64,000 nucleotides of DNA from Planomonospora sp. ID67723. GTDB lineage: Bacteria; Actinomycetota; Actinomycetes; Streptosporangiales; Streptosporangiaceae. The notes beneath the pieces were generated by a model. That model was not told the origin of the DNA and searched no databases. It saw only the letters and a list, made by a program, of their open reading frames with translations. Location: positions 558,001-622,000 of the forward strand of contig NZ_JABTEZ010000003.1 of the NCBI RefSeq assembly GCF_015711605.1, written 5' to 3'. How positions within the stretch are numbered: position 1 is the first letter of the stretch; the number at the start of each line of letters is the position of its first letter. Made by a program: the position numbers and the translations under genes. This document shows, piece after piece, positions 3,723-59,322 of the stretch.

Positions 3723-4841
3723 TTGTCCTCGCCAGTTCTCTCTGGTTCTTACGATCTTTCTTCGCTCGGCTGGAACGACTCTCTCGCCGCCGAGCTCCCC
3801 GCCGGTACGATTCCCGCCCGAGTGGCCCGCGTCGACCGCGGCGCCGCCGAGGCGCTCTGTGCCGACGGCCATCTGACGGTCCACTACAGCGCGCGGGTAC
3901 GGCGGGCCGCCGCGGCCGACCCGGTGGCCCTGCCCTGCGTGGGCGACTGGGCCGCGCTCCGGCGGTTGCCCGAGGGGCGTTTCGAGCTCGACGCGCTCCT
4001 GCCGCGCCGTACCGCCTTCGTCAGGGGAGGGGTGGGCCGCACCTCGCAGGGCGGGCTGTCCGGCGACTCCCAGGGGCAGGTCCTGGCCGCCAACGTCGAC
4101 GTCGTCTTCGTCGCCGAGCCCGCTCTGCACGCCACCGACACCGCCGACCTGGGCCGGATCGAGCGGCTGCTCGCGCTGGCCTGGGAGAGCGGCGGGCAGC
4201 CGGTGGTGCTCGTCACCAAAGCCGACCTCGTCGGTGACAGCCTCGACTACCTGATGGGCGAGGTCGCCGCGGCCGCACCAGGCGTGGACGTCCATGCGGT
4301 CTGCTCCCTCACCGGACAGGGCGTGGACATCGTCCGCGGCTACCTGGGCGGGACCCGCACCGCCGTGGTGCTGGGCGCCTCGGGCGCGGGCAAATCCACC
4401 CTGGTCAACGCGCTGGCGGGGGAGGCGGTGATGGAGACCCAGCAGGTCCGCGCCGGGGACGGCCGGGGACGGCACACCACCGTGCACCGTGAGCTCATCC
4501 CGCTCGGCGGGGGCGGGCTCGTCATCGACACCCCCGGCATCCGGCGGATCGGCCTGTACGACATGGGCGAGGGCGTGGACCTGGTCTTCTCCGACATCGA
4601 GGAGCTGGCGGCGCGGTGCAGGTTCGCCGACTGCGGGCACGACAGCGAGCCCGGTTGCGCCGTCATCGCCGCGATCGAGGACGGCACGCTCCCCGAGCGG
4701 CGGCTGGCGAGCTGGAACAAGCTCCAGCGGGAGGCCACCTGGATGGCGTCCAGGACCGACGCGAGGCTCCGCAAGGAGCTGCAGAACAAGTGGAAGGTCA
4801 TCCACAAGGAGATGCGGAAGCCCGGCCGTAACCGTCCCTGA
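3723..4841 (+). CDS. rsgA: Ribosome small-subunit-dependent GTPase A
   Basis: A 372-residue circularly permuted GTPase that helps mature the 30S subunit. An N-terminal OB-type region is followed by G4 (VTKAD near 160), G1/P-loop GASGAGKST near 220, the switch around GRGRHTTVHREL, and G3 DTPGIRR near 268. The C-terminal zinc knuckle reads CRFADCGHDSEPGC. All hallmark motifs are present and the length is normal. The TTG start at 3723 is preceded by AAAAGGG with a long 10-base spacing. Expression may be set by the leader ORF and hairpins upstream. A phosphoribosyltransferase gene follows after 64 bases. Confidence 0.93.
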   Translation: MSSPVLSGSYDLSSLGWNDSLAAELPAGTIPARVARVDRGAAEALCADGHLTVHYSARVRRAAAADPVALPCVGDWAALRRLPEGRFELDALLPRRTAFVRGGVGRTSQGGLSGDSQGQVLAANVDVVFVAEPALHATDTADLGRIERLLALAWESGGQPVVLVTKADLVGDSLDYLMGEVAAAAPGVDVHAVCSLTGQGVDIVRGYLGGTRTAVVLGASGAGKSTLVNALAGEAVMETQQVRAGDGRGRHTTVHRELIPLGGGGLVIDTPGIRRIGLYDMGEGVDLVFSDIEELAARCRFADCGHDSEPGCAVIAAIEDGTLPERRLASWNKLQREATWMASRTDARLRKELQNKWKVIHKEMRKPGRNRP

Positions 4842-4905
4842 GATGTGGGTATGACCGCTATGTGAGTTATGTGACAGTATCCCCGGTCCGGAAGGGGCCG
4901 GGCTC

Positions 4906-5580
4906 ATGAGCGGTGACCCGGGAGTGCGCCTGCCCTTCGCCGGCCGGGCGGAGGCGGGCGTCCTCCTGGGCGAGAGACTCTCGGCCCTGGGGCTGGAGGA
5001 CCCGATCGTGCTCGCGCTGCCGCGCGGGGGAGTGGAGGTGGCCGTTCCCGTCGCGGTGCGGCTGGGCGGCGTGCTCGACGTGCTGGTCAGCAGGAAGATC
5101 GGCCATCCGGCCAACCCGGAGTTCGGGGTGGGGGCGGTGGCCGAGGGCGGTGAGCCCGTCTTCGACGAGGGCGTGCTGGCACGCCTGGGGCTGACCGAGG
5201 AGGACCTCGCCCACGTGGTCGAGGCGGAGCGCGCCGAACTGGCCCGGCGCGTCGAGGTCTACCGGAGGGAACGGCGGCTGCCCGCGCCGGGCGGCAGGAA
5301 CGTGGTCGTGGTCGACGACGGGCTGGCCACGGGCGTCACCGCCCGGGCGGCGCTGCGCGCGGTCGGGGCGGGGCGTCCCGGGCGGCTGGTGCTCGCCGTC
5401 CCGGTGGCGGCGCCGGAGACGGCGCGGGCCATGCGGACGGAGGCCGACGAGGTGGTGACGCTCGCCACGCCTCCGGACTTCTACGCTGTGGGACAGTGGT
5501 ACCGGAGGTTCGACCAGCTCGGCGACGCCGATGTTCTCGACCTGCTCGACACCTGGGCCCGTGCGCGGGACAGCGTGTGA
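4906..5580 (+). CDS. Phosphoribosyltransferase-family protein
   Basis: A 224-residue protein with the type I phosphoribosyltransferase PRPP loop VVVVDDGLATGVTARAA near residues 135-151 and the N-terminal VLALPRGGVEVAVPVA block near 36-51. The family includes predicted PRTases of dienelactone-hydrolase-linked operons; substrate unknown. The ATG at 4906 follows a GGAAGGGG. It is probably cotranscribed with rsgA. The gene's stop lies inside a 12-bp inverted repeat that should terminate transcription. Confidence 0.85.
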   Translation: MSGDPGVRLPFAGRAEAGVLLGERLSALGLEDPIVLALPRGGVEVAVPVAVRLGGVLDVLVSRKIGHPANPEFGVGAVAEGGEPVFDEGVLARLGLTEEDLAHVVEAERAELARRVEVYRRERRLPAPGGRNVVVVDDGLATGVTARAALRAVGAGRPGRLVLAVPVAAPETARAMRTEADEVVTLATPPDFYAVGQWYRRFDQLGDADVLDLLDTWARARDSV

Positions 5581-5608
5581 TCTCGCAGGAACGTCAGCGA
5601 GATCACAC
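5575..5608. terminator. Bidirectional terminator between the PRTase gene and whiB
   Basis: A perfect 12-bp inverted repeat GTGTGATCTCGC / GCGAGATCACAC with a 10-base loop, overlapping the PRTase stop codon. It sits between two convergent genes. Confidence 0.7.
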
Positions 5609-5637
5609 GTGCGGGGGAAAGCCGGGTGGAGGTTTGT

Positions 5638-5952
5638 TCAGGCGACGGCGCTGATGCCGGCGCTGGCGGCGCGGCGCATGCGACGGCGGCGCTCGGAGGC
5701 GCGCTCGTCCTCGTTCAGGCCGCCCCAGGTGCCGTACTTCTCCGGACGGGACAGCGCGTAGTCAAGGCACTCGGCGCGGACGGGGCACTGGCCGCAGATG
5801 GCCTTGGCCTTACGCTCGCGGATATCACGCTCGGGCTGACGCTCGCCATCGGGACCGAAGAAGAGCACAAGGTCCTCGCCCCGGCACGCGGCGTCATCCT
5901 GCCAGCCCCAGCTGGGCCGAGGCCGGGCGGTCTGCCGACGTACCTGAGACAT
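5638..5952 (-). CDS. WhiB-family iron-sulfur transcription factor
   Basis: A 104-residue Wbl protein. The four 4Fe-4S cysteines are C23, C53, C56 and C62 (C-X29-C-X2-C-X5-C). They are followed by the turn GTWGG at 74-78 and a basic tail (ERRRRMRR) for DNA binding. Wbl proteins bind the primary sigma factor and sense redox or NO. I cannot place it in a named Wbl subclass with certainty. The ATG at 5952 has AGAAGGTGG upstream. Confidence 0.92.
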   Translation of the reverse strand: MSQVRRQTARPRPSWGWQDDAACRGEDLVLFFGPDGERQPERDIRERKAKAICGQCPVRAECLDYALSRPEKYGTWGGLNEDERASERRRRMRRAASAGISAVA

Positions 5953-6055
5953 GAGAAAACCACCTTCTAGTGAGAAGTATTTCGGGTTACTACCGCATTG
6001 GACGTTTTTGACATCCTTGGAGCCAACGCGTGGACCGGCCGCGATGTTCCCTCTG

Positions 6056-6994: not shown

Positions 6995-7013
6995 ACACCC
7001 TCCCTATCCAGAC

Positions 7014-7032
7014 TTAGGTAAGACTAACCTAA
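7014..7032. promoter_or_regulatory. Iron box (IdeR/DmdR-type operator)
   Basis: TTAGGTAAGACTAACCTAA matches the 19-bp DtxR/IdeR consensus at 17 positions, with intact TTAGGT and ACCTAA arms. It lies just upstream of the minus-strand sucrase/ferredoxin-like gene. Confidence 0.85.
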
Positions 7033-7094
7033 GGGATTCGAGGGCATGTCGTAGGGGGGGCGGGATGGATGAAGGCATCCCGCGCGTGCCGGGT

Positions 7095-15138: not shown

Positions 15139-15142
<4 letters not shown>

Positions 15143-15195
15143 GCGACACCCCCCGGAACAGCCGCATGATCGCGGAATCGCGGCCAGAATACTGA
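15139..15195 (+). CDS. Micro-ORF bridging the kinase and metallophosphoesterase genes
   Basis: An 18-codon open frame whose ATG overlaps the kinase stop (ATGA) and whose TGA lies two bases before the next gene's ATG. One of seven such bridging frames in the window. No recognisable peptide. A role in passing ribosomes on is inferred. Confidence 0.3.
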
Positions 15196-22325: not shown

Positions 22326-23720
22326 TTACCCGACCGGTACGGCCCGTGCCAGCGCGGCCAGCGCCTCGGTGAACGCCGAGGCAGGCGGGGTGACCAGGCC
22401 CGCGCCCACCTGCCCGGTGCCCGCGACCCGGCCCGCGATGCCGGTGTTCACCGTGGGCAGCACGCCGGTCCTGGCCACCAGCGTCACGTCCACGCCGACC
22501 GGCGTGCCCCGGAAGCCGAGACCGGGGATCTGGTAGGCCGGATGCTCGGCGAGGGTGATCTCGTACATCGACCGGGTGGCCGCGGTGGCCTCGGAGACGT
22601 CGCCCCCGACGAACCTGACGATCGCCGGGGCCGCCGCCATCGCGAAGCCGCCCAGCCCCGCCGTCTCGGTGATCGTCGAGTCGCCGATGTCGGGGTTGGC
22701 GTCCGCCGGGCCGTACGCGCCGAGGTAGAGCCCGTCCGGCACCCCCGCCGGGCCGGTGAACCAGCGCCCGCCGAGACCGGAGACCTGGATCCCGAAGTCG
22801 GTGCCGTTGCGCGCCATCGCGACGACCATGGTGGAGCCCGGCACGTCCCTGGCCGCGTCCGCGCTCACCTTGCACGCGGCCATGCCCGCGTTGAGGAAGA
22901 AGTGGTCGTTGCCGGCCGCGAAGCGCAGCACCTCGGCCGCGCGGGCGGGGGCGGCCTCCACCAGTCCCGGTGCCAGCTCGCGCACCAGGAGCGAGGTCGC
23001 GGCGCGGTTGCGGTTGTGCAGTTCGTCGCCCATCTGCAGGGCCTGCGCGATCAGCGCCCGCAGATCCAGTGGGCCGGTCAGCTCCAGGGCGGCCCGCAGG
23101 GCGGGGCCGAGCACCTCGTCCATCCAGCGCAGCCGGCCGATCACCTCGGGCCCGTAGGCGCCGTAGCGCAGCACCTTGCCGAGCCCCTCGTTGAGCGAGC
23201 AGTAGGCGGTGCCCCCGTGCTCGGCGTCGCGCACCTCGAACATCCACATCGACGGGCTGACCACGCCCGCCATCGGTCCCACCGTCCGGTGGTGGTGGCA
23301 GGGCTCCAGCCGGGCCCGCCCGGCGGCCAACCGGTCCTCCGCCTCCCGCGCGTCGGAGGCCAGGCCCTCCAGCAGCATCGCGCCGATCAGCGCGCCGCGC
23401 ATCGGTCCCGAGGCGCGTTCCCACTCGATCGGCGGCCCGGCGTGCAGGAACGTGCCCGGAGGCAGGTCCAGCACCTCGTGCGCGGGCCGTACCGCGACGA
23501 GCTGCGGGCGGGCGGAGACCAGCCTGCCCGCGGCCCGGGCGTTGGCGGCGGTCCTGCGGGGATCGGCCAGCACCCGGGCCAGGTCGTCCTCGGTGCCGGG
23601 CATCGGCGGGCGCCAGTCCACCGCCACGCGCGGTACGGCCTGCGCGTCCAGCGCCTGGCCGAGCACGTCCGCCCCGGCCGTGATCACGCGGGGCTCGCCG
23701 GAGAGCATGGACAACGTCAT
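22326..23720 (-). CDS. allG: DUF1116 protein, AllG/YlbE-like oxamate carbamoyltransferase subunit
   Basis: A 464-residue DUF1116 protein. Recognisable blocks are LVAVRPAHEVL, FLHAGPPIEWERASGPMRGA, GVVSPSMWMFEV, GDELHNRNRAA and FFLNAGMAACK. In E. coli the ylbE, fdrA and ylbF products together make the oxamate carbamoyltransferase that closes anaerobic allantoin breakdown. All three homologues lie side by side here (allH, allF, allG order), each close to or overlapping the next. The ATG has AGGAG upstream. The function is assigned from family and neighbours. Confidence 0.82.
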   Translation of the reverse strand: MTLSMLSGEPRVITAGADVLGQALDAQAVPRVAVDWRPPMPGTEDDLARVLADPRRTAANARAAGRLVSARPQLVAVRPAHEVLDLPPGTFLHAGPPIEWERASGPMRGALIGAMLLEGLASDAREAEDRLAAGRARLEPCHHHRTVGPMAGVVSPSMWMFEVRDAEHGGTAYCSLNEGLGKVLRYGAYGPEVIGRLRWMDEVLGPALRAALELTGPLDLRALIAQALQMGDELHNRNRAATSLLVRELAPGLVEAAPARAAEVLRFAAGNDHFFLNAGMAACKVSADAARDVPGSTMVVAMARNGTDFGIQVSGLGGRWFTGPAGVPDGLYLGAYGPADANPDIGDSTITETAGLGGFAMAAAPAIVRFVGGDVSEATAATRSMYEITLAEHPAYQIPGLGFRGTPVGVDVTLVARTGVLPTVNTGIAGRVAGTGQVGAGLVTPPASAFTEALAALARAVPVG

Positions 23721-23791
23721 CGAAGGCTCCTGAGAGGGAGAGGACGGGCCCGGGGCGTTCCCGGCGGGTCCTGCCCGGGGCCGCGGGTCAA
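23717..23791 (-). CDS. Micro-ORF bridging allF and allG
   Basis: A 24-codon open frame from a TTG that overlaps the allF stop (TTGA) to a TGA overlapping the allG start (ATGA). Arg/Pro-rich, no recognisable peptide. One of seven bridging frames; coding status uncertain. Confidence 0.25.
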   Translation of the reverse strand: MTRGPGQDPPGTPRARPLPLRSLR

Positions 23792-30537: not shown

Positions 30538-31403
30538 AGCCACCCCCCTTCACCTACCACGCTCCCGGCTCTCTGGGCGAGGCCCTCGACGTCCTCGCCG
30601 GGACCGGGGAGGACGGCAAGGTGCTCGCGGGCGGCCAGAGCCTCATCCCGCTGCTGAACATGCGGCTGGCCGCCCCGGCGCACCTGGTCGACATCAACCG
30701 GCTGGCCGGGCTGGCCGCCGTCGAGGTGGAGCCGGGCGGGGTCCGGGTCGGGGCGCTGGCCCGCCACGCCCGGGTGGAGCGCTCCGAGCCGGTGGCCGCC
30801 GCCCAGCCCCTGCTCCGCCAGGCGCTGCGGCTGGTGGCCCACCCGGTGATCCGCAACCGCGGCACCGTCGTCGGCAGCCTGGTCCACGCCGACCCGGCCG
30901 CCGAGCTGCCCGCGGTGCTGGCGCTGCTCGGCGGTTCGGTACGGCTGGCGCGGCGCGGCGGCACCCGGGACGTCCCGGCGGGGGAGTTCTTCACCGGCCC
31001 GCTGGAGTCGGCGGCCGGTCCCGGCGAGCTGGCCGTCTCCGCCTTCTTCCCGGCGCTGCCCCCGCGCTCGGGAACGGCCTTCCGCGAGGTGGCCAGGCGG
31101 CACGGCGACTACGCCCTGGCCGGGATCGCGGCCCTGGTCGGCCTGGACGAGGACCTGCGGATCACCGCCGCGCGGGTGGCGTGCGTGAGCGCGGGCCCGG
31201 TCCCGGTGCTCGCCGACGTCACCGGCGTGTGCGGGCACCGGCCGCCCGCCTCCGCCGACTGGGCCGCCGCGGCGCGGGCCGTACAGGACCGGGCCGAGCC
31301 GGAGGACGACATCCACGCGACCGCCGCCTACCGGCGGCACCTGATCGGCGTCCTCGCCGAGCGGGCGCTCCGCGACGCGGCCAGGGAGGCCCTGAATGCC
31401 TGA
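30534..31403 (+). CDS. Molybdenum hydroxylase FAD subunit (CoxM/xanthine dehydrogenase middle type)
   Basis: A 289-residue FAD-binding subunit. VLAGGQSLIPLLNMRLA near residue 30 and HPVIRNRGTVVGSLVHADPAAELPAVL near 100 are the two FAD motifs (the second has VGS where GGS is usual), with a CODH_C-like C-terminus. The TTG start is supported by GAGG seven bases upstream and a four-base TTGA overlap with the permease stop. It passes electrons from the Fe-S subunit to FAD and on to the acceptor. Confidence 0.9.
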   Translation: MKPPPFTYHAPGSLGEALDVLAGTGEDGKVLAGGQSLIPLLNMRLAAPAHLVDINRLAGLAAVEVEPGGVRVGALARHARVERSEPVAAAQPLLRQALRLVAHPVIRNRGTVVGSLVHADPAAELPAVLALLGGSVRLARRGGTRDVPAGEFFTGPLESAAGPGELAVSAFFPALPPRSGTAFREVARRHGDYALAGIAALVGLDEDLRITAARVACVSAGPVPVLADVTGVCGHRPPASADWAAAARAVQDRAEPEDDIHATAAYRRHLIGVLAERALRDAAREALNA

Positions 31404-31881
31404 GCAGGCCCACGAGATCACGCTGGTCGTCAACGGCACGCTCCGGCGGGCCGAGGTGCCGGGGCGGCGGCTGCTGTCGGACTGCCTCCGGCACGACCTG
31501 GGGCTGACCGGCACCCACGTCGGGTGCGAGCACGGGGTGTGCGGGTGCTGCACGGTGCTGCTGGACGGCGAGCCGGTCCGTTCCTGCCTGACGTTCGCGG
31601 TCACCGTGGACGGCCGCGAGATCACCACGGTGGAGGGGCTCGCCGACGGCGAGCGGATGTCACCGGTGCAGCGGGCCTTCGCCGAGTGCCACGGCCTGCA
31701 GTGCGGGTTCTGCACCCCGGGCTTCCTGTGCACGGTCACCGCGCTGCTGCGGGAGAACCCGGCGCCGACCGAGGAGGAGGTGCTGGAGGGCATCTCCGGG
31801 AACCTGTGCCGGTGCACCGGTTACCAGAACATCGTCAAGGCCGTGCACCGCGCGGCCGAGATCATGGCGGAGGAGTCGTGA
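31396..31881 (+). CDS. Molybdenum hydroxylase 2Fe-2S subunit (CoxS type)
   Basis: A 161-residue subunit with two clusters. The plant-type motif is GCEHGVCGCCTVLLDGEPVRSC near residue 43. The alpha-helical domain has CGFCTPGF near 101 and GNLCRCTGYQNIV near 134. All eight Cys are present. It overlaps the FAD gene by eight bases. Confidence 0.95.
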   Translation: MPEQAHEITLVVNGTLRRAEVPGRRLLSDCLRHDLGLTGTHVGCEHGVCGCCTVLLDGEPVRSCLTFAVTVDGREITTVEGLADGERMSPVQRAFAECHGLQCGFCTPGFLCTVTALLRENPAPTEEEVLEGISGNLCRCTGYQNIVKAVHRAAEIMAEES

Positions 31882-31946
31882 CCACCATGGGCGAACGCTG
31901 CCGCCCCGGGACCTCGACGGACGCGTTCGAGGAGGCCGGGCGGTGA
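31878..31946 (+). CDS. Micro-ORF bridging the Fe-S and Mo subunit genes
   Basis: A 22-codon open frame from a GTG overlapping the upstream stop (GTGA), with GGAGGAG before it, to a TGA overlapping the GTG of the Mo-subunit gene (GTGA). The peptide has no recognisable motif. Best explained as a translational relay; coding value unproven. Confidence 0.4.
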   Translation: MTTMGERCRPGTSTDAFEEAGR

Positions 31947-34330
31947 CGACCAAGCTGTTCGGGGAGCCCGTCCAGCGCAGGGAGGACCCGCGGCTGCTCA
32001 CCGGCCGGGGCCGCTACCTGGACGACCTCGGGCCGGACGCGCTGGCCGCGGCCTTCGTCCGCTCCCCGCACGCGCACGCGCTGATCCGGGACATCGACGT
32101 CTCGGCCGCGCTCGACGTGGACGGGCTGGTGGCGATCTACACCTGGGAGGACCTGCCGGACCGGCTCGCCGAGCCGCTGCCGCTGCTCATCCCGCACCCG
32201 GCGCTGACCCACGGCCGCACCGCCTACCCGCTGGCCCGCGAGCGCGTCCGGCACGTCGGCGAGCCGGTCGTCATGGTCGTCGCCCGCGACCGCTATCTCG
32301 CCGAGGACGCCTGCGCGCTGATCCGGGTGGACTACGAGCTCCTCAAGCCGGTCGTCGGCGTGGAGGAGGCGGCGCAGTCCGCGCAGCTCGTCCACGACGA
32401 CGTGCCGGGCAACGTCGGCGCGCACCTGGTTCAGGAGGTGGCCTCGGCGGACGGGCGCGGCGCCCGCGAGGTCATCGAGAGCGCCCCCCACACGCTGGCC
32501 TTCCGGCTGGACGTCGAGCGCAGCGCGTCCATGCCGCTGGAGGGGCGCGGCGTGCACGCCCGGTGGGACGCCGACGACTCCTCCCTGCGCGTGTACTCCA
32601 GCACCCAGACCTCCACCAGCGTCCGGATGGCCGTCGCCGCCAAGCTCGGCCTGCCGCTGCCCAAGGTCGAGGTCGTCGCGCCGGACGTGGGCGGCGGGTT
32701 CGGCGTGAAGATCATGCACCCGTGGCCCGAGGAGGTCCTCGTCCCCTGGGCGGCGATGCTGCTGGGCCGGGAGGTCAAGTGGACCGAGGACCGGCGCGAG
32801 CACTTCGTCTCCTCGGCCCACGAGCGGGCCCAGGTGCAGTTCGTCCGGGTCGGCTTCGACGGCGGCGGCCGGGTGCTCGGCCTGGAGGTGACCATCCTGC
32901 ACGACCACGGCGCCTACACGCCGTACGGGATCATCGTGCCGATCATCACCTCCACCCAGTTGCCGGGGCCGTACCGGATCGGGTCCTACCGGGTCGAGTT
33001 CTCCTCGATCTACACCAACACGGTGCAGGTCACGCCGTACCGGGGGGCGGGCCGCCCGCAGGCGGTCTTCTGCATGGAGCGGACCATGGACCGCATCGCC
33101 GCCCATCTCGGGCTGGACCGTACGGCGGTGCGCGCGGCGAACTTCATCCAGCCCGACGAGTTCCCCTACGACCAGGGCCTGATCTTCCAGGACGGCCGCC
33201 CGCTGATCTACGACAGCGGGGACTACCCCGAGTCGCTGCGCATGCTCAAGGAGCTGATCGGCTGGGACGCCTTCCCCGAGGCCAAGGCCGAGGCCGCGCG
33301 GGAGGGCCGCCGGATCGGCATCGGCATCGGCTGCTACGTCGAAGGCACCGGCGTCGGGCCGTACGAGGGCGGCCACGTCCAGATCACCTCCGACGGCCGG
33401 GTGCACGTCTCCACCGGGCTCACCTCGCAGGGCCAGGGGCACGAGACCTCGTTCGCGCAGATCGCCGCGGCCGAGCTGGGCGTGCCGCTGGAGCGGGTCT
33501 CGGTCGTCACCGGCGACACCCGCAGGTTCGGCTACGCGGTCGGCACCTTCGCCTCCCGCGCCGCGGTGATGAGCGGCAACGCGATCGCCCTGGCCTGCCG
33601 GAAGGTCCGCGAGAAGGCCCTGCGGATCGCCGCCGACGCGCTGGAGGCCGACCCGCGCGACCTGGAGATCACCGACGGCGTGGTGCACGTGGCGGGCTCC
33701 CCGCACGCCTCCGTCCCGCTGGCCACCGTGGCCGTGCTGTCCAATCCGCTGCGGTACGCCTTCGACGAGGAGGCGGTCCGGGCGACGCAGTTCGCGGGCG
33801 GTTCCTCCTTCGACCGGCCTCCGGTGGAGGAGGGCCAGGAGCCGGGCCTGGAGGGACGCGACTACTACTCGCCGATCCGCTCCACCTTCGCCTCGGGCAT
33901 GCACGCGGCGATCGTGGAGACCGACCCGCTCACCGCCGAGATCCGCATCCTGCGCTACGCCGTCGTCCACGACTGCGGCAACCTCATCAACCCGATGATC
34001 GTCGAGGGGCAGATCCACGGCGGCGTCGCGCAGGGCGTCGGCGGCGCGCTGTACGAGCGGATGGTCTACGACAGCCACGGCCAGTTGCTCAACGCCTCGT
34101 TCATGGACTTCCTGATGCCGTACGCGACGGAGGTCCCGAGAGTGGAGACCGCACACCTGCAGACCCCGTCCCCGCTCAACCCGCTCGGCATCAAGGGCGC
34201 GGGGGAGGCGGGGGTCATCCCGGTCTCGGCGGTGATCGCCTCGGCGATCGAGGACGCCGAGGGCATCCCGATCGACCGCATGCCCATCTCCCCGTCCGAT
34301 CTGTTCGGCCTGCGCCGCGCAGCCTCCTGA
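31943..34330 (+). CDS. Molybdenum hydroxylase large subunit (form II, CoxL/XdhA type)
   Basis: A 795-residue Mo-cytosine-dinucleotide subunit with QRREDPRLLTGRGRYLDD at the start, VAPDVGGGFGVKIM near 250 and TPYRGAGRPQAVFCMER near 362. That last motif is the form II loop, not the AYxCSFR of true CO dehydrogenase. The C-terminal GIKGAGEAGVIPVSAV carries the catalytic Glu. The likely activity is hydroxylation of a purine or other N-heterocycle, consistent with the permease in the same operon and PucR nearby. The GTG start has GGAGG seven bases before it. Confidence 0.92.
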   Translation: MTTKLFGEPVQRREDPRLLTGRGRYLDDLGPDALAAAFVRSPHAHALIRDIDVSAALDVDGLVAIYTWEDLPDRLAEPLPLLIPHPALTHGRTAYPLARERVRHVGEPVVMVVARDRYLAEDACALIRVDYELLKPVVGVEEAAQSAQLVHDDVPGNVGAHLVQEVASADGRGAREVIESAPHTLAFRLDVERSASMPLEGRGVHARWDADDSSLRVYSSTQTSTSVRMAVAAKLGLPLPKVEVVAPDVGGGFGVKIMHPWPEEVLVPWAAMLLGREVKWTEDRREHFVSSAHERAQVQFVRVGFDGGGRVLGLEVTILHDHGAYTPYGIIVPIITSTQLPGPYRIGSYRVEFSSIYTNTVQVTPYRGAGRPQAVFCMERTMDRIAAHLGLDRTAVRAANFIQPDEFPYDQGLIFQDGRPLIYDSGDYPESLRMLKELIGWDAFPEAKAEAAREGRRIGIGIGCYVEGTGVGPYEGGHVQITSDGRVHVSTGLTSQGQGHETSFAQIAAAELGVPLERVSVVTGDTRRFGYAVGTFASRAAVMSGNAIALACRKVREKALRIAADALEADPRDLEITDGVVHVAGSPHASVPLATVAVLSNPLRYAFDEEAVRATQFAGGSSFDRPPVEEGQEPGLEGRDYYSPIRSTFASGMHAAIVETDPLTAEIRILRYAVVHDCGNLINPMIVEGQIHGGVAQGVGGALYERMVYDSHGQLLNASFMDFLMPYATEVPRVETAHLQTPSPLNPLGIKGAGEAGVIPVSAVIASAIEDAEGIPIDRMPISPSDLFGLRRAAS

Positions 34331-36997: not shown

Positions 36998-38266
36998 CTA
37001 GTGATCCACGCCCTCGGCCTCGGCGCGAGGCGTATCGCTCACCGGCGACGACAGCGCCCGCCACGCGATGACTCCGGCCAGGGTCAGGCTCACCCCGCAG
37101 GCCATGATGACGGGTTCCTCGGTGAAGGTCTCGCTGAGCACGGCTCCGGCGAAGGGGGCGGGGATCGTGGCCAGGGTGGAGAGGAAGACCTGGACGGCGA
37201 GCACGCGGCCGCGCAGGCCGTCCGGGATCTCCCGCTGGAGGTAGCTGGTCTGCGCGATCACTGCGATGGTGAAACCGGCACCCTGGACGAACGTCGGGGC
37301 CAGGTGGAGGAGAGCCGGCCAGTCGTCCGGGACGAACGGGATCAGCAGCAGGAACGGCTGGGTGACCACCAGGGGAAGCCAGGCCGTCCGGACGCCGCCG
37401 AGCCGGCGCGCGAGCGGCCAGGCGACGAGCGCACCGGCCAGCGCGCCCAGGGGTTCGCCTCCGATGAGCCAGGCGTGAGCGGCGGGGTCCTGCTTCTCGC
37501 CGAGGAAGCGCCACGCCACGGCCAGCATGCCGTAGACGGTGCTGAGGACGAGAAGGCAGAAGTATCCGAGGGCGCCGGCGATGACCAGCCCGCGCAGATC
37601 GCGCCGGCTCAGCAGGAAGCCGACCCCCGCACCCAGCTCCCGCAGCAGCGGGCGGCGGGCAGCCCGGTCGGGCGCCTCCTCGGGAACGTCGATCCGCCTG
37701 ACCAGCAGCGCCGAGGCGAGCATGGCGAGAACCTTGAGCAGGGGACCGGCGGACGCGGACATGGACCGGAAGAGCGCATCCAGCGGCTTGTCCAGCGCGT
37801 GGTGCAGGGCCAGGCCCTGCACCTCGGCAGCGGTGGACAGGGCGGCGTTGGCGGGCAGCAGCCGGTCGGCGTCCACGATGCGGGGCAGGTAGCTCGCCCA
37901 GGCGACGGTGCCGAAGGCCGAGGCGATCCCGGAGCCGATGCCCGCCAGCTGGAGGTGGAGCGGCGAGAGCGCCTCCGCCCACCAGGCGATCGGGACGGTG
38001 ACGGTCAGGACGGCCTGGGCGAGGGCGGTGTTCACCAGGACGGATCGGTGGGAGAGCCGGTCGATCCACACTCCGGCGGGGAGCAGGAAGAGCAGGGTGG
38101 CCATGGCCTCCGGGAGGAGCAGTGCCGCGAGATCCGACGGACCCGCCTCCGTGGCGGTCACCGCCAGCAGCGGCAGCGCGATCCACCCGAGGCCGGCACC
38201 CACCGAGTATGTCGTCTGTGCGCCGAGGAACAGCAGGAAGTTCCGATGCCGGAACAGGGAGATCAT
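36998..38266 (-). CDS. MFS exporter (paralogue 2)
   Basis: A 422-residue MFS protein starting MISLFRHRNFLLFLGAQTTYSVG, with the loop LLPAGVWIDRLSHRS, paralogous to the neighbour downstream. It lies 25 bases after cydB on the same strand and its ATGA start overlaps a nine-codon micro-ORF. It is therefore probably transcribed with cydAB. A link between respiration and this exporter is unproven. Confidence 0.85.
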   Translation of the reverse strand: MISLFRHRNFLLFLGAQTTYSVGAGLGWIALPLLAVTATEAGPSDLAALLLPEAMATLLFLLPAGVWIDRLSHRSVLVNTALAQAVLTVTVPIAWWAEALSPLHLQLAGIGSGIASAFGTVAWASYLPRIVDADRLLPANAALSTAAEVQGLALHHALDKPLDALFRSMSASAGPLLKVLAMLASALLVRRIDVPEEAPDRAARRPLLRELGAGVGFLLSRRDLRGLVIAGALGYFCLLVLSTVYGMLAVAWRFLGEKQDPAAHAWLIGGEPLGALAGALVAWPLARRLGGVRTAWLPLVVTQPFLLLIPFVPDDWPALLHLAPTFVQGAGFTIAVIAQTSYLQREIPDGLRGRVLAVQVFLSTLATIPAPFAGAVLSETFTEEPVIMACGVSLTLAGVIAWRALSSPVSDTPRAEAEGVDH

Positions 38267-38292
38267 TCCGGCATCGTAGTGTCCTGGAACAT
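38263..38292 (-). CDS. Nine-codon micro-ORF between cydB and the MFS gene
   Basis: MFQDTTMPE: its ATG overlaps the cydB stop (TGATG) and its stop overlaps the MFS start (ATGA). Same frame geometry as the other bridging frames. Confidence 0.3.
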   Translation of the reverse strand: MFQDTTMPE

Positions 38293-46292: not shown

Positions 46293-47297
46293 ATGCAAGA
46301 GGCGGAGAACGCGATCACCGCGCACGGGGTGCGGAAGAACTACCCGGGAGCCGCGGGCGACGCCGGGCTGAACGGGTTCGACCTGAGGGTCCCGGCGGGT
46401 TCCGTCTGCGGGCTGCTGGGCCCGAACGGCGCGGGGAAGACGACGGCGGTCCGGATCCTGGCCACGTTGCTGGAGATGGACGAGGGCAGGGCGAGTGTCG
46501 CGGGGTTCGACGTGCGGACGCAGGGGCGGCGGGTCCGCGAGCGCATCGGGCTGGTGGGCCAGTACGCCGCGGTCGACGAGATCCTGACCGGGCGGCAGAA
46601 CCTGGTGATGTTCGGCAGGCTGAACCACCTGCCCGTCCCGGTGGCCAGGAGGCGGGCGGACGAGCTGCTTGAGCGGTTCTCGCTCACCGAGGCCGCGGGG
46701 AGGCCGGCGGGCGGCTACTCGGGCGGCATGCGCCGCAGGCTCGACCTCGCGGCCAGCCTCATCGTCTCGCCGCCGGTGCTGTTCGTCGACGAGCCGACCA
46801 CCGGGCTCGATCCGGCCGCCCGCCAGGAGGTCTGGACGGCCGTGCGAGAGCTGGTGGGTGCCGGCACCACGGTGCTGCTGACCACGCAGTACCTGGAGGA
46901 GGCCGACCGGCTGGCGGATCGCGTCTGCATGCTCAGGGCGGGCAAGGTCGTCGCCGAGGGCACTCCGGACGAGCTCAAGTCCGCCCTCGGCGGGGACTGG
47001 ATCGAGATCGTGCTCGCCGGCCCGGCGGACGCCGAGGCCGCCCGGCCCATCGCCGCCCGGATCGCCTCCGGAGAGCTGCGCCTCGACGGCCCCGCCCACC
47101 GGATCGGCGTCCCCGTCACCGAGCGCACCAGGGCGCTGGTGAAGGTCGCGACCGCGCTGAACGAGGCGGGGATCGAGCCGGAGGACATCACGCTCCGCCG
47201 TCCCACCCTCGACGAGGTCTTCCTCCACCTGACGGGCGACGGGGCGGGGGAGACGCGCGAGCACCGGAACGGGAACCCGGAGGAGGCGCTCACATGA
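46293..47297 (+). CDS. DrrA-type ABC exporter ATPase
   Basis: A 334-residue ATPase with Walker A GPNGAGKTT near residue 48, signature YSGGMRRRLDLAASL near 145, Walker B VLFVDEPTTGLDP near 165, and the DrrA-family C-terminal extension after 230 (RRPTLDEVFLHLTG). It drives export with the permease encoded downstream. Likely substrates are drugs or lipids, judged only by family. Controlled by the divergent TetR. Confidence 0.92.
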   Translation: MQEAENAITAHGVRKNYPGAAGDAGLNGFDLRVPAGSVCGLLGPNGAGKTTAVRILATLLEMDEGRASVAGFDVRTQGRRVRERIGLVGQYAAVDEILTGRQNLVMFGRLNHLPVPVARRRADELLERFSLTEAAGRPAGGYSGGMRRRLDLAASLIVSPPVLFVDEPTTGLDPAARQEVWTAVRELVGAGTTVLLTTQYLEEADRLADRVCMLRAGKVVAEGTPDELKSALGGDWIEIVLAGPADAEAARPIAARIASGELRLDGPAHRIGVPVTERTRALVKVATALNEAGIEPEDITLRRPTLDEVFLHLTGDGAGETREHRNGNPEEALT

Positions 47298-47383
47298 GCG
47301 CGGCGGCCGTACCCGGAAGCCCGACTGCGGCCGGCGCGAACGTGACCGCCGGATCCGAGAACGCGACACAGGAGTCCGAATGA
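47294..47383 (+). CDS. Micro-ORF bridging the ABC ATPase and permease genes
   Basis: A 29-codon open frame. Its ATG overlaps the ATPase stop (ATGA) and has GGAGG eight bases upstream. Its TGA overlaps the permease ATG (ATGA). Ala/Ser/Thr-rich and without a motif. It is the best-supported of the seven bridging frames because it has its own ribosome-binding site. Confidence 0.45.
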   Translation: MSAAAVPGSPTAAGANVTAGSENATQESE

Positions 47384-54754: not shown

Positions 54755-54885
54755 CAGCTCGAACGGGTTGACCACAAAGATCCCGTGCCGTCGAAGTCCT
54801 TGGCGTTGCGGCTCACCGGTGTCCGGCCGTTCACTCCGGCCGTCGCGGCGATGAGGCCGCCGTCCGGAAGCGGATGCCGTCGCCC
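54755..54885 (-). pseudogene. Degenerate PIN-domain (VapC) toxin remnant
   Basis: The minus strand encodes HPLPDGGLIAATAGVNG then RNAKDFDGTG in one frame, and IFVVNPFEL in the next frame. Joined across a single frameshift, they reproduce the VapC C-terminus (DxLIAATA...TRNxxDFxGTG..xxNPFE). The N-terminal half is missing and no antitoxin gene is seen in the 287-base gap. Confidence 0.65.
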
Positions 54886-55026
54886 GCTCTCCCTGAGACG
54901 AGGCGTCGGCCATCTGGAGGACGCGCCGGTTCAGGACACGTTTTCGCATGATTCATTGACGAGACACCGGATTCTGGGATCTGCTGTGGGAATCTTCGTC
55001 GGGGGTGAGGTCCGAGGAGGAGTCGC

Positions 55027-57060
55027 ATGCGTCTGCGCATGATCGTGGCAAGTCTCGCGCTGGCCGTGACATCGGTGGCGGCCGCGCCCGCCGGGGCCGG
55101 TCCCGCCCCCGGCGCGTGGACCGATCCCGAGCCCGCCGCGACCCCCGCCGCACCGGCCGTGCCGGGCTGCGACCCGATCGCCGGGGACGAGTGCCTGCTG
55201 CCCTTCCCCAACGACTGGTTCACCGAGGCCGCGCGCACCCCCACCGGACGCCGGGTCTCCCTCGCCCCCGAGGCCATGCCGGAGAACGCCGCGGGCAGGC
55301 CGGTCGACCCGGCGCAGTGGAACGCCGCCGACGGGTTCTCGCCGGGTTCGATGCTCCTGGTCCACCTGCCCGGCCTCGACCTCGCCGCGAGCGGGGCCGC
55401 GCCCGTCACCGACATCGGCTGGTCGCTGCGGCGCGACGCCCCCATCGTGATCGTCGACACCCGCACCGGGGAGCGCTGGCCGTACTGGGCGGAGCTCGAC
55501 GCGAACGCCGCCGACCCGGCCCGGCAGGCGCTGATCGTCAGACCGGCGAAGAACTTCCGGGAGGGGCACCGCTACGCCGTCGCCCTGCGGAACCTGAAGA
55601 ACGCCACGGGTGAGGACCTCCCCACCTCCTCGGTCTTCGCCCGGCTCCTGGGCGACAGGCTCCCGCCGGGCGACCCGCTCGCCGCCCGCCAGCACGCGCT
55701 CCGCCGCACCCTCGGCGACCTCGCCCGCGCGGGGGTGGTGGCGGACGGCCTCCAGCTCGCCTGGGAGTTCACCGTCGCCAGCGAGAAGGGCATCGCCGGG
55801 CCCGTGCTGGCCATGCGCGACCAGACACTGCGCGCCCTGCGCGGGCGTTCGCCGGAGTTCACGGTCACCTCCGTCACCGACCTCGCCCCCGAGCAGGACC
55901 GGCACGTCGCACGTGAGGTGGCCGGCGAGATCGAGGTTCCCAACTACCTCGACAAGCCGGGCGGCCCGCCCGGTTCGAACCTCAACCGGAGCGCCGACGG
56001 GCTGCCCCGCCCGCTCGGCGACACCCTCAGGGCCCAGTACCACTGCGTGATCCCGCGCTCGGCCTTCGCCCGGCCCGCCCACCCCTCCCTGTACGGCCAC
56101 GGCCTGCTCGGCAGGGCCACCGAGGTCCGGGCCCGCAACGTCCGGGCGATGGCCGGGGAGCACAACTTCGTCTTCTGCGCCACCAAGTGGATCGGCATGT
56201 CCGACGAGGACGTGCAGCACGTCGCGGGCGTCTTCAGTGACTTCTCCCGGTTCGGCACGGTCACCGACCGGCTCCAGCAGAGCCTGCTCAACTTCGTCCT
56301 GCTCGGCCGGGCCATGACCGCCAAGGACGGGCTGGCGAGCCACGAGGCCTTCCGGGACGCCAAGGGCAGGTCCCTGCTCGACCGGAAGGCCGCCCTGGCC
56401 TATGACGGCAACAGCCAGGGCGGCATCGCGGGCGGCGCGCTCGTCGCCGTCTCGCCCGACGTCCGCAACGCCGTGCTCGGCGTGCCGGGCATGAACTACA
56501 GCACGCTGCTCAACCGCAGCGTCGACTTCCAGCCGTTCCAGCAGCTCCTGGACCGGAGCTACCCGGACAAGCTGACCCAGCAGATCTGCTTCGCGCTGCT
56601 GCAGATGCTCTGGGACCGGGCCGAGGCGAACGGATACGCCCAGCACCTGACCGCAGACCCGCTGCCCGGCTCGCCCCGGCACCGCGTGCTCCTGCACGTC
56701 GCCTTCGGCGACCACCAGGTCTCCACCGTGACCGCCGAGGTCGAGGCCCGCACCGTCGGTGCCCGCATCCACCGGCCCGCCGTCGCGGAGGGGCGCAATC
56801 CCGACGTGGCGCCGTACTGGGGGATCCGGGCACTGCCGCGCTGGTCGTACCCCGGTTCGGCGATCATCGTCTGGGACAGCGGCACCCCCGCGCCGCCCAC
56901 GGCCAACATCCCGCCGCTCGGCCCCGAGTACGGCCGGGACTCCCACGAGGACCCGCGCCACGATCCCGACGCCCGTACCCAGAAGGCCTACTTCCTCCGG
57001 CACGGCGTGGTCGTGAACGTCTGCGGCGACGCCCCCTGCACGGCCGCCCGGGCGGACTGA
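55027..57060 (+). CDS. Large secreted alpha/beta-hydrolase-like protein
   Basis: A 677-residue protein with a Sec signal peptide (MIVASLALAVTSVAAAPAGA, about residues 5-24). CDPIAGDECLLPFPNDWFT follows at the mature N-terminus. SLYGHGLLG near 355 and YDGNSQGGIAGGAL near 460 give the nucleophile elbow (G-N-S-Q-G), and HVAFGDHQV near 560 is a possible acid/His region. The fold is probably hydrolase; substrate unknown. GGAGGAG lies four bases before the ATG. It stands alone. Confidence 0.7.
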   Translation: MRLRMIVASLALAVTSVAAAPAGAGPAPGAWTDPEPAATPAAPAVPGCDPIAGDECLLPFPNDWFTEAARTPTGRRVSLAPEAMPENAAGRPVDPAQWNAADGFSPGSMLLVHLPGLDLAASGAAPVTDIGWSLRRDAPIVIVDTRTGERWPYWAELDANAADPARQALIVRPAKNFREGHRYAVALRNLKNATGEDLPTSSVFARLLGDRLPPGDPLAARQHALRRTLGDLARAGVVADGLQLAWEFTVASEKGIAGPVLAMRDQTLRALRGRSPEFTVTSVTDLAPEQDRHVAREVAGEIEVPNYLDKPGGPPGSNLNRSADGLPRPLGDTLRAQYHCVIPRSAFARPAHPSLYGHGLLGRATEVRARNVRAMAGEHNFVFCATKWIGMSDEDVQHVAGVFSDFSRFGTVTDRLQQSLLNFVLLGRAMTAKDGLASHEAFRDAKGRSLLDRKAALAYDGNSQGGIAGGALVAVSPDVRNAVLGVPGMNYSTLLNRSVDFQPFQQLLDRSYPDKLTQQICFALLQMLWDRAEANGYAQHLTADPLPGSPRHRVLLHVAFGDHQVSTVTAEVEARTVGARIHRPAVAEGRNPDVAPYWGIRALPRWSYPGSAIIVWDSGTPAPPTANIPPLGPEYGRDSHEDPRHDPDARTQKAYFLRHGVVVNVCGDAPCTAARAD

Positions 57061-57136
57061 CCCCGGTCCGGCCCATGACCGCCGGAGCCCGCCCCGGCCG
57101 GTGGGCGAGGGGGCCCGGCCCCGGGAGGCCGCGCCG

Positions 57137-57709
57137 TCAGAGCCGGACGAACTCGCCCGGGACCGTCGCGCCGTGCACCAGGAGGTCGGCGCGGGCCCGG
57201 GTGCCGTCGGCGGCGAACCACTCGTCCTCGGCGCGCATCCAGGCGTGCCACTGGGGCTCCAGTGCCGCGCCGTCCCTGGCCAGGGCGCGGGCCAGCCGGA
57301 GCTCCCGGGGCGCCTCGACCCACACCGCGTAGGCGATCGGGGCCCCGAGCCGGGCCGTGCTCACCCCCTCCAGCAGCAGGACCGGAGCCACCGGGACCTC
57401 CACCCGCTCGGCGAACGCACCGCGCGCCCAGTCGTAGCGCCGGTAGCCGCCCGGCTCCCCGGCCGAGAGCGGGCCGAGCACCTGGTCCTCCACCTGCCTG
57501 AACCACGCCTCCAGCGGCCCGTCCCACGGCACCGGGAAGTCGTCGCTGTGGACCACCTGGCAGTCCAGAGCGCGGCCGAGCCGTCCGGCGAAGGTCGTCT
57601 TCCCCGATCCGCCCGGCCCGTCCACCGCGACGACCCGCACCGGCCCGCACGACGGCGGCAGCGCGCGGACCGCCGACGCCAGGCCGCGGAAGGAGATCGG
57701 GGTCTTCAC
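57137..57709 (-). CDS. Uridine kinase-like P-loop protein
   Basis: A 190-residue NTPase with VVAVDGPGGSGKTTFAGRLG near residue 26 (Walker A), VVHSDDFPVPWDG near 52 and the substrate block LLLEGVSTAR near 110. It resembles actinobacterial uridine kinase/phosphoribulokinase-family proteins; the exact substrate is unproven. The GTG at 57709 fits the family N-terminus. No normal ribosome-binding site is seen, so it may be leaderless. Confidence 0.8.
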   Translation of the reverse strand: MKTPISFRGLASAVRALPPSCGPVRVVAVDGPGGSGKTTFAGRLGRALDCQVVHSDDFPVPWDGPLEAWFRQVEDQVLGPLSAGEPGGYRRYDWARGAFAERVEVPVAPVLLLEGVSTARLGAPIAYAVWVEAPRELRLARALARDGAALEPQWHAWMRAEDEWFAADGTRARADLLVHGATVPGEFVRL

Positions 57710-57732
57710 CTTCCCAGGATGGCACCCGATGC

Positions 57733-57773
57733 GCCCGGACCTGTGGGGGAGGAAGTCTCCCGCAGGTCCGGGC
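57733..57773. promoter_or_regulatory. 41-base hairpin in the divergent gap before the CaiB gene
   Basis: GCCCGGACCTG (57733-57743) / CAGGTCCGGGC (57763-57773), perfect 11-bp arms, with an inner GGGAG/CTCCC stem. It sits 24 bases from the kinase start in a 357-base divergent region (57710-58066). The rest of that region shows nothing I can identify apart from the CaiB ribosome-binding site. Confidence 0.5.
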
Positions 57774-58066
57774 GGATCACACCGCCGAGGAGGAGCCGAG
57801 GAGGAGAGGTGGCCGCCGGAGGACCCCACCGCCGAAGAAGACGCCGAAGGCCCCTCCCGGCTCCACGGCCCGATTCCCGGTGATCGTCGAAACGCCTGTC
57901 CCCGGAGCGGGGATCCGGAAGCCCGGCCGCCGGTCCTCCATGGGAAACCGAGGTTACCTCTGGGTATCGTTCCGGGCGGGGGACCTGGCACGCTTGCTGT
58001 GCGTCCCCCCGTGCCCTTCCCGGCCCGTCTCGGCTAGGATCGGCGACTCTCACCCGGAGGTTGATC

Positions 58067-59224
58067 TTGCAGGGAGCCCTTGGCGACATCGTCGTCCTCG
58101 ACCTGTCCCGCGCGCTGGCCGGGCCGCACGCCGCCCAGATGCTCGGTGACCTGGGCGCACGGGTGATCAAGGTGGAGCATCCGGAGGGCGGCGACGAGTC
58201 GCGCGGCTGGGGACCGCCCTTCGTCGGCCCGGACCACGACATCTCCACCTACTTCCTCGCCGCCAACCGCAACAAGCTCTCGATCACCGTGGACCTCAAG
58301 TCCGGCGAGGGCAAAGCGCTGGTCGAGCGCCTGGTACGGCAGAGCGACGTGCTGATCGAGAACTTCAGGACCGGGGTCCTGGACCGGCTCGGCTTCACCG
58401 CGGAACGGCTGCACGAGCTCAACCCCCGCCTGATCGTGCTCTCGATCACCGGCTTCGGTCACGACGGGCCGGAGGGCGGCCGGCCCGGGTACGACCAGAT
58501 CGCTCAGGGCGAGGCGGGCCTGATGAGCCTCACCGGTCCCTCGCCCGCCGAGCCGTACCGGGTGGGAGCCTCGATCGCCGACCTGCTGGCGGGCATCCAC
58601 GGCGCGTACGGCGTGGTCGCGGCCCTCTACGAGCGCGAGCGGACAGGCCGGGGGAAAGTGGTGCGGACCTCGCTGCTGGCCGCGGTGACCGGTGTGCACT
58701 CCTACCACGGCACCGCCTGGACGGTCGGCGGCCGGGTTCCGGGAGCGGGGGGCAACCACCATGCCTCGATCGCCCCCTACGGCGCGTTCCGCTGCGCCGA
58801 CGGCATGATCCAGATCGCGGTGGCCAACGAGGGGCAGTGGAGGAAAGTGGCCGCCCTCCTCGACATCGATCCTGACATGGCGAAATATGCGACGAACAGG
58901 GAAAGATTCGCGCACCGGGATGAGCTGATCGCCGACATGGAGCGGGCACTCGCCAAGCACGGCCGTGAGCACTGGCTGGCCGCGCTCGGCGGACTCGGCG
59001 TGCCCGCCGGGGCGATCCGTTCCATCGACGAGGTCTACGCCTGGGAGCAGACCCGCTCCCAGGGACTGCTGGTCGAGGTCGACCACCCCGTGCTCGGCCC
59101 GATCGAGCTGCCCGGCCCGCCGCTCCGCTTCGACGGCGAGGGCCCCCGCGCGCACACCGCCCCGCCCGCCCTCGGCCAGCACAACGACGAGGTGCTCGCC
59201 TGGCTCGCGGAGCGCGAACGATGA
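58067..59224 (+). CDS. CaiB/BaiF-family CoA transferase
   Basis: A 385-residue family III CoA transferase. VLDLSRALAGPHAAQMLGDLGARVIKVE at the start, LIENFRTGVLDRLG near 104, GYDQIAQGEAGLMSLTG near 143 and the catalytic Asp in VGASIADLLAG near 169. It moves CoA between carboxylic acids. The TTG at 58067 is preferred because GGAGG is six bases upstream; the TTG at 58061 is adjacent to it. A carboxyltransferase gene follows, suggesting an acyl-CoA pathway. Confidence 0.9.
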   Translation: MQGALGDIVVLDLSRALAGPHAAQMLGDLGARVIKVEHPEGGDESRGWGPPFVGPDHDISTYFLAANRNKLSITVDLKSGEGKALVERLVRQSDVLIENFRTGVLDRLGFTAERLHELNPRLIVLSITGFGHDGPEGGRPGYDQIAQGEAGLMSLTGPSPAEPYRVGASIADLLAGIHGAYGVVAALYERERTGRGKVVRTSLLAAVTGVHSYHGTAWTVGGRVPGAGGNHHASIAPYGAFRCADGMIQIAVANEGQWRKVAALLDIDPDMAKYATNRERFAHRDELIADMERALAKHGREHWLAALGGLGVPAGAIRSIDEVYAWEQTRSQGLLVEVDHPVLGPIELPGPPLRFDGEGPRAHTAPPALGQHNDEVLAWLAERER

Positions 59225-59322
59225 GCGTCCGCCGCCCGGCCCTCCCGGCCCGCCCGCCCCGCCGTACGGCCCCGGCCCGCCCGTGCCGCCGTACGCTCCC
59301 GGGACCCGGAGCGCCGCGATGA
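59221..59322 (+). CDS. Micro-ORF bridging the CaiB and carboxyltransferase genes
   Basis: A 33-codon open frame, Arg/Pro-rich. Its ATG overlaps the CaiB stop (ATGA) and its TGA overlaps the next gene's ATG (ATGA). Same geometry as the other bridging frames; no peptide motif. Confidence 0.3.
   Translation: MSVRRPALPARPPRRTAPARPCRRTLPGPGAPR

What the first reader, a model, noticed from the sequence alone, without database searches (positions are those of the whole stretch)
4838..59322. Seven bridging micro-ORFs with the same frame geometry link operon genes
At seven same-strand junctions a short stop-free frame starts in the overlap with the upstream stop codon and ends at the downstream start codon. 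They are 4838-4909 (rsgA-PRTase, CTG start), 15139-15195 (kinase-phosphoesterase), 23717-23791 (allF-allG, TTG), 31878-31946 (Fe-S-Mo subunit, GTG), 38263-38292 (cydB-MFS), 47294-47383 (ABC ATPase-permease) and 59221-59322 (CaiB-carboxyltransferase). Six end in an exact ATGA/GTGA overlap. The gaps (64, 55, 67, 61, 25, 82, 94) are all 1 modulo 3, and the peptides are unrelated. Ribosomes could terminate and reinitiate across each gap as they do at the directly overlapping pairs in this window (allH/allF, TetR/glpD, thioesterase/ADH). Some starts are my choice and CTG/TTG initiation is uncertain.
Basis: partly seen in the sequence, partly recalled or inferred. Interest (0 to 1): 0.72.

Follow-up and report, generated by a model that had tools for sequence, protein, structure and literature searches.

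The report
Tiny relay ORFs bridge separated genes
When neighbouring bacterial genes that used to share a stop/start signal drift apart, a tiny throw-away reading frame often fills the gap, so that ribosomes can probably still be handed from one gene to the next.

Summary
All seven open frames exist as described, and all seven gaps are 1 mod 3. Much of that is forced: any TGA stop supplies an NTG, and NTGA at both ends requires gap = 1 mod 3.

A real subset is hidden in that average. Where ATG/GTG with a Shine-Dalgarno motif overlaps the upstream TGA, the micro-ORF ends exactly on the downstream start in 14 of 36 own gaps, against 14 of 140 with CTG/TTG. Junction 4 is a direct 4-nt overlap in 52 of 81 sequences; all 15 gaps of 10 nt or more keep NTGA at both ends, 11 being 1 mod 3. 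In usually-overlapped junction families, ATG/GTG micro-ORFs end exactly on the start in 28 of 57 gaps (shuffles 10.7) and overrun out of frame in 1 (shuffles 18.7).

Best reading: ribosome-relay ORFs replacing lost overlaps. Mycobacterial MIRUs are the known precedent, but these are not repeats. Junctions 4, 6 and 7 fit, 3 probably; 1 fails; 2 and 5 are unsupported. No translation data were available.

The parts
31878..31946 (+). Junction 4: relay micro-ORF (GTG, 22 codons) between the [2Fe-2S] subunit and the molybdopterin subunit; GTGA at both ends, Shine-Dalgarno before each
   Evidence: 52 of 81 sequences have a direct -4 overlap here; all 15 gaps of 10 nt or more have NTGA at both ends, 11 of 15 are 1 mod 3, 10 of those 11 open
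31396..31881 (+). upstream gene of junction 4, [2Fe-2S] subunit (Fer2, Fer2_2)
31943..34330 (+). downstream gene of junction 4, molybdopterin-binding subunit
47294..47383 (+). Junction 6: micro-ORF (ATG, SD of 4 or more) between ABC ATPase and ABC-2 permease; in the same-genus relative the ATPase runs straight into the permease ATGA with no gap
59221..59322 (+). Junction 7: micro-ORF (ATG, SD of 4 or more) between CoA-transferase III and carboxyltransferase; frame kept in the relative (gap 94 against 85)
   Evidence: implied gap phase 0/1/2 in 61 family genomes is 3/13/45
23717..23791 (-). Junction 3: micro-ORF (TTG) between AllF-like and AllG; the relative has ATGA and gap 79, frame kept; 24 of 52 orthologous junctions are direct -4 overlaps
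4838..4909 (+). Junction 1: CTG frame between rsgA and a phosphoribosyltransferase; frame broken by 1 nt in the relative, not a relay; the gap holds a conserved stretch of DNA
15139..15195 (+). Junction 2: ATG frame between protein kinase and metallophosphoesterase, ends 2 nt before the downstream ATG; the relative has CTGA, gap 88 and a downstream ATGA; undecided
38263..38292 (-). Junction 5: short frame between cydB and an MFS gene; in the relative the similarity stops at the end of cydB; undecided

Best explanation
A subset of the bridging frames are ribosome-relay ORFs. The two flanking genes were once directly coupled by a 4-nt NTGA overlap. DNA gained at the overlap, or a shifted tail of the upstream gene, pushed them apart but left NTGA with a Shine-Dalgarno motif at the upstream stop and NTGA at the downstream start. 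The ancestral start is still used: a ribosome finishing the upstream gene reinitiates there, translates a short peptide of no fixed sequence, ends on the downstream NTGA and reinitiates on the downstream gene. Gap length 1 mod 3 and an open frame are what this needs. Shown: geometry, overlap as the commonest state in relatives (junction 4), enrichment, near absence of out-of-frame overruns. Inferred: that overlap is ancestral, translation, reinitiation and any gain for the downstream gene.
For: Own genome: ATG/GTG + SD of 4 or more at the upstream TGA (S+) occurs in 14 of 35 full bridges, 22 of 211 other TGA gaps (Fisher 5e-5) and 21 of 449 convergent TGA stops; exact ending in 14 of 36 S+ gaps against 6.3 in shuffles, reached by 1 of 300. 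Junction 4 over 81 sequences: 52 direct overlaps; 15 of 15 gaps keep NTGA at both ends, 11 are 1 mod 3; in 11 of 15 the upstream protein still ends as in overlapped species. Usually-coupled families, ATG/GTG, 57 gaps: exact 28 (shuffled 10.7), overrun 1 (shuffled 18.7), exact share of exact + in-gap 0.64 against 0.45 (4 of 300). AllH-AllF: seven exact bridges of 16, 16, 28, 49, 73, 100 and 106 nt. Junction 7: phase 1 in 13 against phase 0 in 3. Of 10 S+ full bridges paired with the relative, 6 are full in both (one of them with a 1-nt gap there), 3 are direct -4 overlaps there, 1 is broken.
Against: Own-genome gaps as a whole are even mod 3 and openness is not special. All full bridges pooled show no frame keeping: gap change mod 3 is 8/7/2 of 17 against 35/31/36 of 102 for the others. 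CTG/TTG bridges match chance in the own genome (14 against 12.9), and in coupled families they overrun in 15 of 33. In permease-FAD, 16 of 29 gaps are 0 mod 3, all with CTG or TTG at the stop, 13 of the 16 in Microbispora or Microtetraspora. The SD at the first site lies in upstream coding sequence and may be kept for the protein. Species are not independent; by family x clade it is 13 units of 35 with an exact bridge against 1 with an overrun, and 56 of the 57 gaps come from four families. The downstream start usually has its own SD (14 of 15 in junction 4), and the literature also reports partial coupling across 50-nt and longer gaps (passages of PMC6728339 and PMC10666635), so a relay may be dispensable.
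Confidence: 0.6

Rival explanations
1. Fossil starts with overrun avoidance: the old start overlapping the upstream stop is still used, but selection only removes frames that run out of phase into the downstream gene. The micro-ORF has no relay function.
For: Overruns are nearly absent (1 of 57) and in-gap stops are also common (16 of 57); the downstream gene usually has its own SD.
Against: Exact endings are over-represented even among harmless outcomes (0.64 against 0.45 in shuffles, 4 of 300), though for own-genome S+ gaps alone this share is not clearly raised (0.58 against 0.44, 45 of 300). Seven AllH-AllF bridges of six lengths end exactly on the start.
Confidence: 0.27
2. Chance plus selection by the reader: any TGA gives an NTG, open frames are common at 73% G+C, and the seven were picked for one geometry.
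For: Even mod 3 and equal openness in the own genome; 35 of 346 gaps meet the whole criterion; junctions 1, 2 and 5 show no independent support.
Against: SD + ATG/GTG enrichment, overlaps in relatives and the deficit of overruns are independent of the selection rule.
Confidence: 0.1
3. Coding remnants: the bridging frame is a shifted tail of the upstream gene or a shifted head of the downstream gene. In G+C-rich codon usage the nearest out-of-frame stop should often be NTG-A (reasoned, not measured), which gives the same geometry without any function.
For: In the relative the junction 6 ATPase runs through to the permease ATGA; 4 of 20 full own bridges and 4 of 21 full relative bridges are -4 overlaps in the partner genome, against 7 of 152 and 3 of 147 of the others.
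Against: In 11 of 15 junction 4 gaps the upstream protein end is unchanged, so nothing was shifted there; it does not explain SD + ATG/GTG at the new stop. It may be an origin rather than an alternative.
Confidence: 0.1
4. The micro-ORFs encode functional small proteins.
For: The S+ ones have starts, stops and SD motifs like ordinary genes.
Against: Peptides and lengths differ even between close relatives.
Confidence: 0.03

Closest known systems
Termination-reinitiation at -4/-1 overlaps (ATGA, TGATG): Huber et al. 2019 (PMC6728339, passages seen) and Front Microbiol 2023 (PMC10666635, abstract and passages seen)
   Same: NTGA stop/start overlap; SD inside the upstream gene
   Different: Here two overlaps in series are joined by a throw-away ORF across 16-120 nt or more; PMC10666635 finds coupling almost abolished at about 20 nt in its constructs, while citing other work that saw it across longer gaps
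MIRUs (mycobacterial interspersed repetitive units), per the review PMC12548453 (passage seen; the 1997 original not read)
   Different: MIRUs are a mobile repeat family; the bridges tested here are not repeats and are found in different species with different lengths and peptides
uPPE2 uORF of M. tuberculosis (PMC11260477, passages seen)
   Same: A short ORF with an AUGA overlap on which translation of the next gene depends
   Different: A riboswitch-controlled leader ORF, not a bridge between two operon genes
Synthetic non-functional upstream ORFs that boost translation (PMC13255528, abstract and outline seen)
   Same: Nonsense peptide, internal RBS next to its stop codon
   Different: Engineered, placed before a target gene, E. 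coli
axe-txe minigene (PMC8708949, abstract and outline seen)
   Same: A mini-ORF inside an operon that affects translation of the next gene; frame and distance matter
   Different: Two codons; possibly acts through mRNA stability

Membership tests
Termination-reinitiation coupled gene pair | -4 or -1 stop/start overlap at the coupled site | tested here: met
   Met at both ends in six of the seven window frames if CTG and TTG count as starts; 52 of 81 sequences of junction 4 are direct -4 overlaps
Termination-reinitiation coupled gene pair | SD motif for the second start inside the upstream ORF | tested here: met
   Junction 4: SD of 4 or more before the first NTG in 13 of 15 gaps and before the downstream start in 14 of 15; junctions 4, 6 and 7 are S+ at the first start, junctions 1, 2, 3 and 5 are not
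[quoted passage not shown]
   Needs reporters or ribosome profiling
MIRU | Member of an interspersed repeat family | tested here: not met
   39 full own bridges (gaps of 10-140) compared with 2.85 Mb of own and relative DNA at E 0.01: orthologues and weak short matches only; the junction 7 bridge alone has 47 listed matches, its own place included, which look like G+C-rich low complexity
[quoted passage not shown]
   Geometry only
MIRU | Sequence similarity to known MIRUs | not tested
   No MIRU sequence was fetched

The most novel reading that the evidence does not exclude
Relay ORFs are a widespread, continually re-created device in these Actinobacteria: whenever a coupled NTGA overlap is pulled apart, a sequence-independent micro-ORF with NTGA at both ends is kept by selection, so that operon genes tens of bases apart remain translationally coupled although annotation shows a plain intergenic gap.
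Probability: 0.5. Interest if true: 0.75.

Novelty: new variant of a known kind. Interest (0 to 1): 0.58.

Why it matters
Coupling is often judged by gap length; PMC10666635, for one, treats pairs more than 20 nt apart as independently translated (passage seen). If relay ORFs work, a share of such pairs are coupled, many short translated ORFs seen in profiling gain a plain function that does not depend on their peptide, and how coupling survives insertions becomes directly testable at about a dozen junctions seen here.

Tried and rejected
Gap mod 3 and frame openness over all gaps: negative in the own genome. A run of five frame-preserving length changes in and near the window did not hold for all full bridges in fresh data (4/6/1 of 11); only the S+ subset and the coupled families carry the signal. 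Before looking at fresh stretches I wrote down a prediction (note: phase 1 above one third among TGA + NTGA gaps); the result was weak (15/21/12 of 48, one-sided p 0.086). The S+ split was devised after that, on the pooled data, so its own-genome p-value is not that of a fixed prediction; the wide comparison came later. GC by codon phase in the bridging frame: only a slight rise at position 3 in own full bridges (0.738, 0.742, 0.788), not used. Repeat or mobile-element origin: rejected. Tandem duplication of the start region as a general origin: mixed; in coupled families the 20 nt before the two starts are more alike than permuted (1 of 500), the 11 nt after are not (213 of 500); single cases such as L230, L232 and L240 suggest it. 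My first shuffle table could not class a mean of 24.0 of 57 shuffled cases and was replaced. One search stopped on a script error after writing its files; one search finished the job. One phase comparison is biased: a phase-2 open S+ junction would be called a -4 overlap, so phases 1 and 0 are the fair comparison. Junction 5 was not followed in the 80 loci.
Full report
The window lies in an 8.34-Mb, 9-contig genome. G+C is 72.9% in the window. The closest named records by its molybdopterin subunit are Planomonospora and Planobispora.

Observation. All seven frames are present as described, with flanking genes as named. The regularity is partly built in. If the upstream stop is TGA, the base before it always makes an NTG codon, and NTGA at both ends can only happen when the gap is 1 mod 3. 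Own genome: 910 same-strand junctions, 346 gaps of 10-120, mod 3 = 108/120/118; frames open 240 (upstream frame), 223 (+1) and 227 (bridging). The relative is less even: 71/106/73 of 250. Full geometry (upstream TGA, downstream NTGA, 1 mod 3, open) is found in 35 of 346 own and 33 of 250 relative gaps.

A hidden subset. Two features are not part of that rule: whether the NTG at the stop is ATG/GTG, and whether a Shine-Dalgarno motif (4 or more bases) precedes it. Both together (S+) occur in 14 of 35 full bridges, 22 of 211 other TGA gaps (Fisher 5e-5) and 21 of 449 convergent TGA stops. In the relative: 10 of 33 against 13 of 150 (p 0.002). Own S+ gaps end exactly on the downstream start in 14 of 36 (6.3 in shuffles) and overrun in 6 (12.3 in shuffles); CTG/TTG gaps match shuffles (14 against 12.9; 48 against 49.4). 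ATG/GTG gaps with a weak SD show no excess of exact endings (9 against 8.6) but fewer overruns (15 against 24.7). Leaving the window out, exact endings are 11 of 33 (S+) against 10 of 132 (CTG/TTG).

Conservation, close pair. Of 172 paired own gaps, 20 are full; length differs in 17 and the change mod 3 is 8/7/2, against 35/31/36 of 102 for the rest: no general frame keeping. Split by start signal (lists), the 10 paired S+ bridges are full in both genomes in 6 cases (one with a 1-nt gap in the relative), direct -4 overlaps in the relative in 3, and broken in 1; 4 further S+ bridges are not in the paired list. The other 10 full bridges are full in both in 4. Full bridges are often direct overlaps in the partner: 4 of 20 and 4 of 21, against 7 of 152 and 3 of 147 of the rest.

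Conservation, wide. A scan of species genomes with the molybdopterin subunit gave 80 loci, the best of 568. Junction 4 was found in 81 of 81 sequences, the window included: 52 direct -4 overlaps, 3 at -1, 1 other overlap, 10 gaps of 0-9, 15 of 10 or more. All 15 have TGA and NTGA; mod 3 is 11 (=1), 3 (=0), 1 (=2); 10 of the 11 are open. In 11 of the 15 the upstream protein still ends in a RAA...EEx motif, as in overlapped L188 and L212; L202 and L209 have four more residues, L195 and L207 a different end. The downstream start (VTTKLFGEPV and close forms) is kept in all 15. So in most cases the genes were moved apart without damage. In Planomonospora/Planobispora the gap is 61, 97, 73, 58, 55 (all 1 mod 3) and 66 (0 mod 3). 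These numbers take starts by homology; with called starts L194 has gap 52 instead of 40.

Over 27 junction families present in 6 or more species, the seven in which at least 30% of members are -4 overlaps hold 57 gaps of 10-250 with ATG/GTG at the stop, 56 of them in four families: phase 0/1/2 = 7/34/16; exact 28, in-gap 16, overrun 1, in-frame 12; shuffles give 10.7, 13.1, 18.7 and 14.6. In the same families 33 gaps with CTG/TTG give exact 3, in-gap 9, overrun 15, in-frame 6. In 20 other families, 44 ATG/GTG gaps give exact 2. Counting family x clade units (clades set by hand from record names), 13 of 35 hold an exact bridge and 1 an overrun. AllH-AllF shows seven exact bridges of six lengths; its two phase-0 gaps both stop inside the gap. 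Permease-FAD shows the reverse in one group: 16 of 29 gaps are phase 0, all with CTG or TTG at the stop, although three ATG/GTG bridges there are exact.

Junction 7 in the family, from hit coordinates alone (loci were withheld): I used 64 genomes whose listed hits cover both sides, 61 of them with an implied gap of 250 or less; phase 0/1/2 = 3/13/45, where phase 2 is that of a direct overlap. Genomes listed with a hit on one side only were not usable, and the listing was cut. Relatedness was not corrected for.

The seven, one by one. Junction 4: relay, strongest. Junction 7: S+, frame kept. Junction 6: S+; direct overlap in the relative, the bridge being partly the old ATPase tail. Junction 3: TTG, but the relative has ATGA with frame kept and the pair is often overlapped: probable. 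Junction 1: CTG, frame broken by one base in the relative; its gap is conserved as DNA instead. Junction 2: start and end differ between the two genomes. Junction 5: similarity to the relative stops at the end of cydB.

Mechanism. Shown: overlap as the commonest state at junction 4, retained double NTGA, SD at the first site, exact endings, lack of overruns. The lack of overruns means that the first start behaves as a used start. Inferred: reinitiation at the end and benefit to the downstream gene. The excess of exact over in-gap endings (0.64 against 0.45, 4 of 300 shuffles) favours relay over mere avoidance, modestly.

Known background. Coupling at -4/-1 overlaps is published (PMC6728339, passages), and PMC10666635 (abstract and passages) reports that about 20 nt almost abolishes it, while citing studies that saw coupling over longer gaps. 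The review PMC12548453 (passages) states that a short ORF may serve only to deliver a ribosome and cites MIRUs, mobile mycobacterial repeats inserted at start codons with a -4 coupled ORF. The bridges here match that architecture but are not repeats. Seven literature searches listed no paper whose title or abstract start describes recurrent non-repeat bridges that replace lost overlaps; this covers open-licence PubMed Central papers only, and the lists were capped.

Noticed in passing
window 4843-4880: Inside the rsgA-phosphoribosyltransferase gap, nearly 40 nt with a direct repeat (TATGTGAG/TTATGTGAC) are almost unchanged in the same-genus relative; it looks like a binding site or promoter. 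A 20-nt piece of it has no second copy within 3 mismatches in the own-genome sample.
   Followed up: partly
window 46293-47380: The C-terminal tail of the DrrA-like ABC ATPase differs by several indels between two close species, so that one has a direct overlap with the permease and the other an 82-nt gap.
   Followed up: partly
L230, 209-nt gap before 10001: The junction (SD, GTGA, first downstream codons) looks tandemly duplicated, with further short repeats in the gap: a possible snapshot of how bridges begin.
   Followed up: partly
L189-L257, permease-FAD subunit junction: In Microbispora, Microtetraspora and a few others this junction has gaps 0 mod 3 with CTG or TTG at the upstream stop, as if the old start had been lost and coupling given up.
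   Followed up: no
own C1 and relative C1/C2, bridge 3' ends (X3 204400, Y1 391958, Y3 387696): Three bridges at different places share their 3' ends at 82-90% over 30-39 nt; in the one I read (Y1 391958) it is GGAGGAGG-rich just before ATGA, so the last residues of such peptides may be set by the next gene's SD.
   Followed up: no
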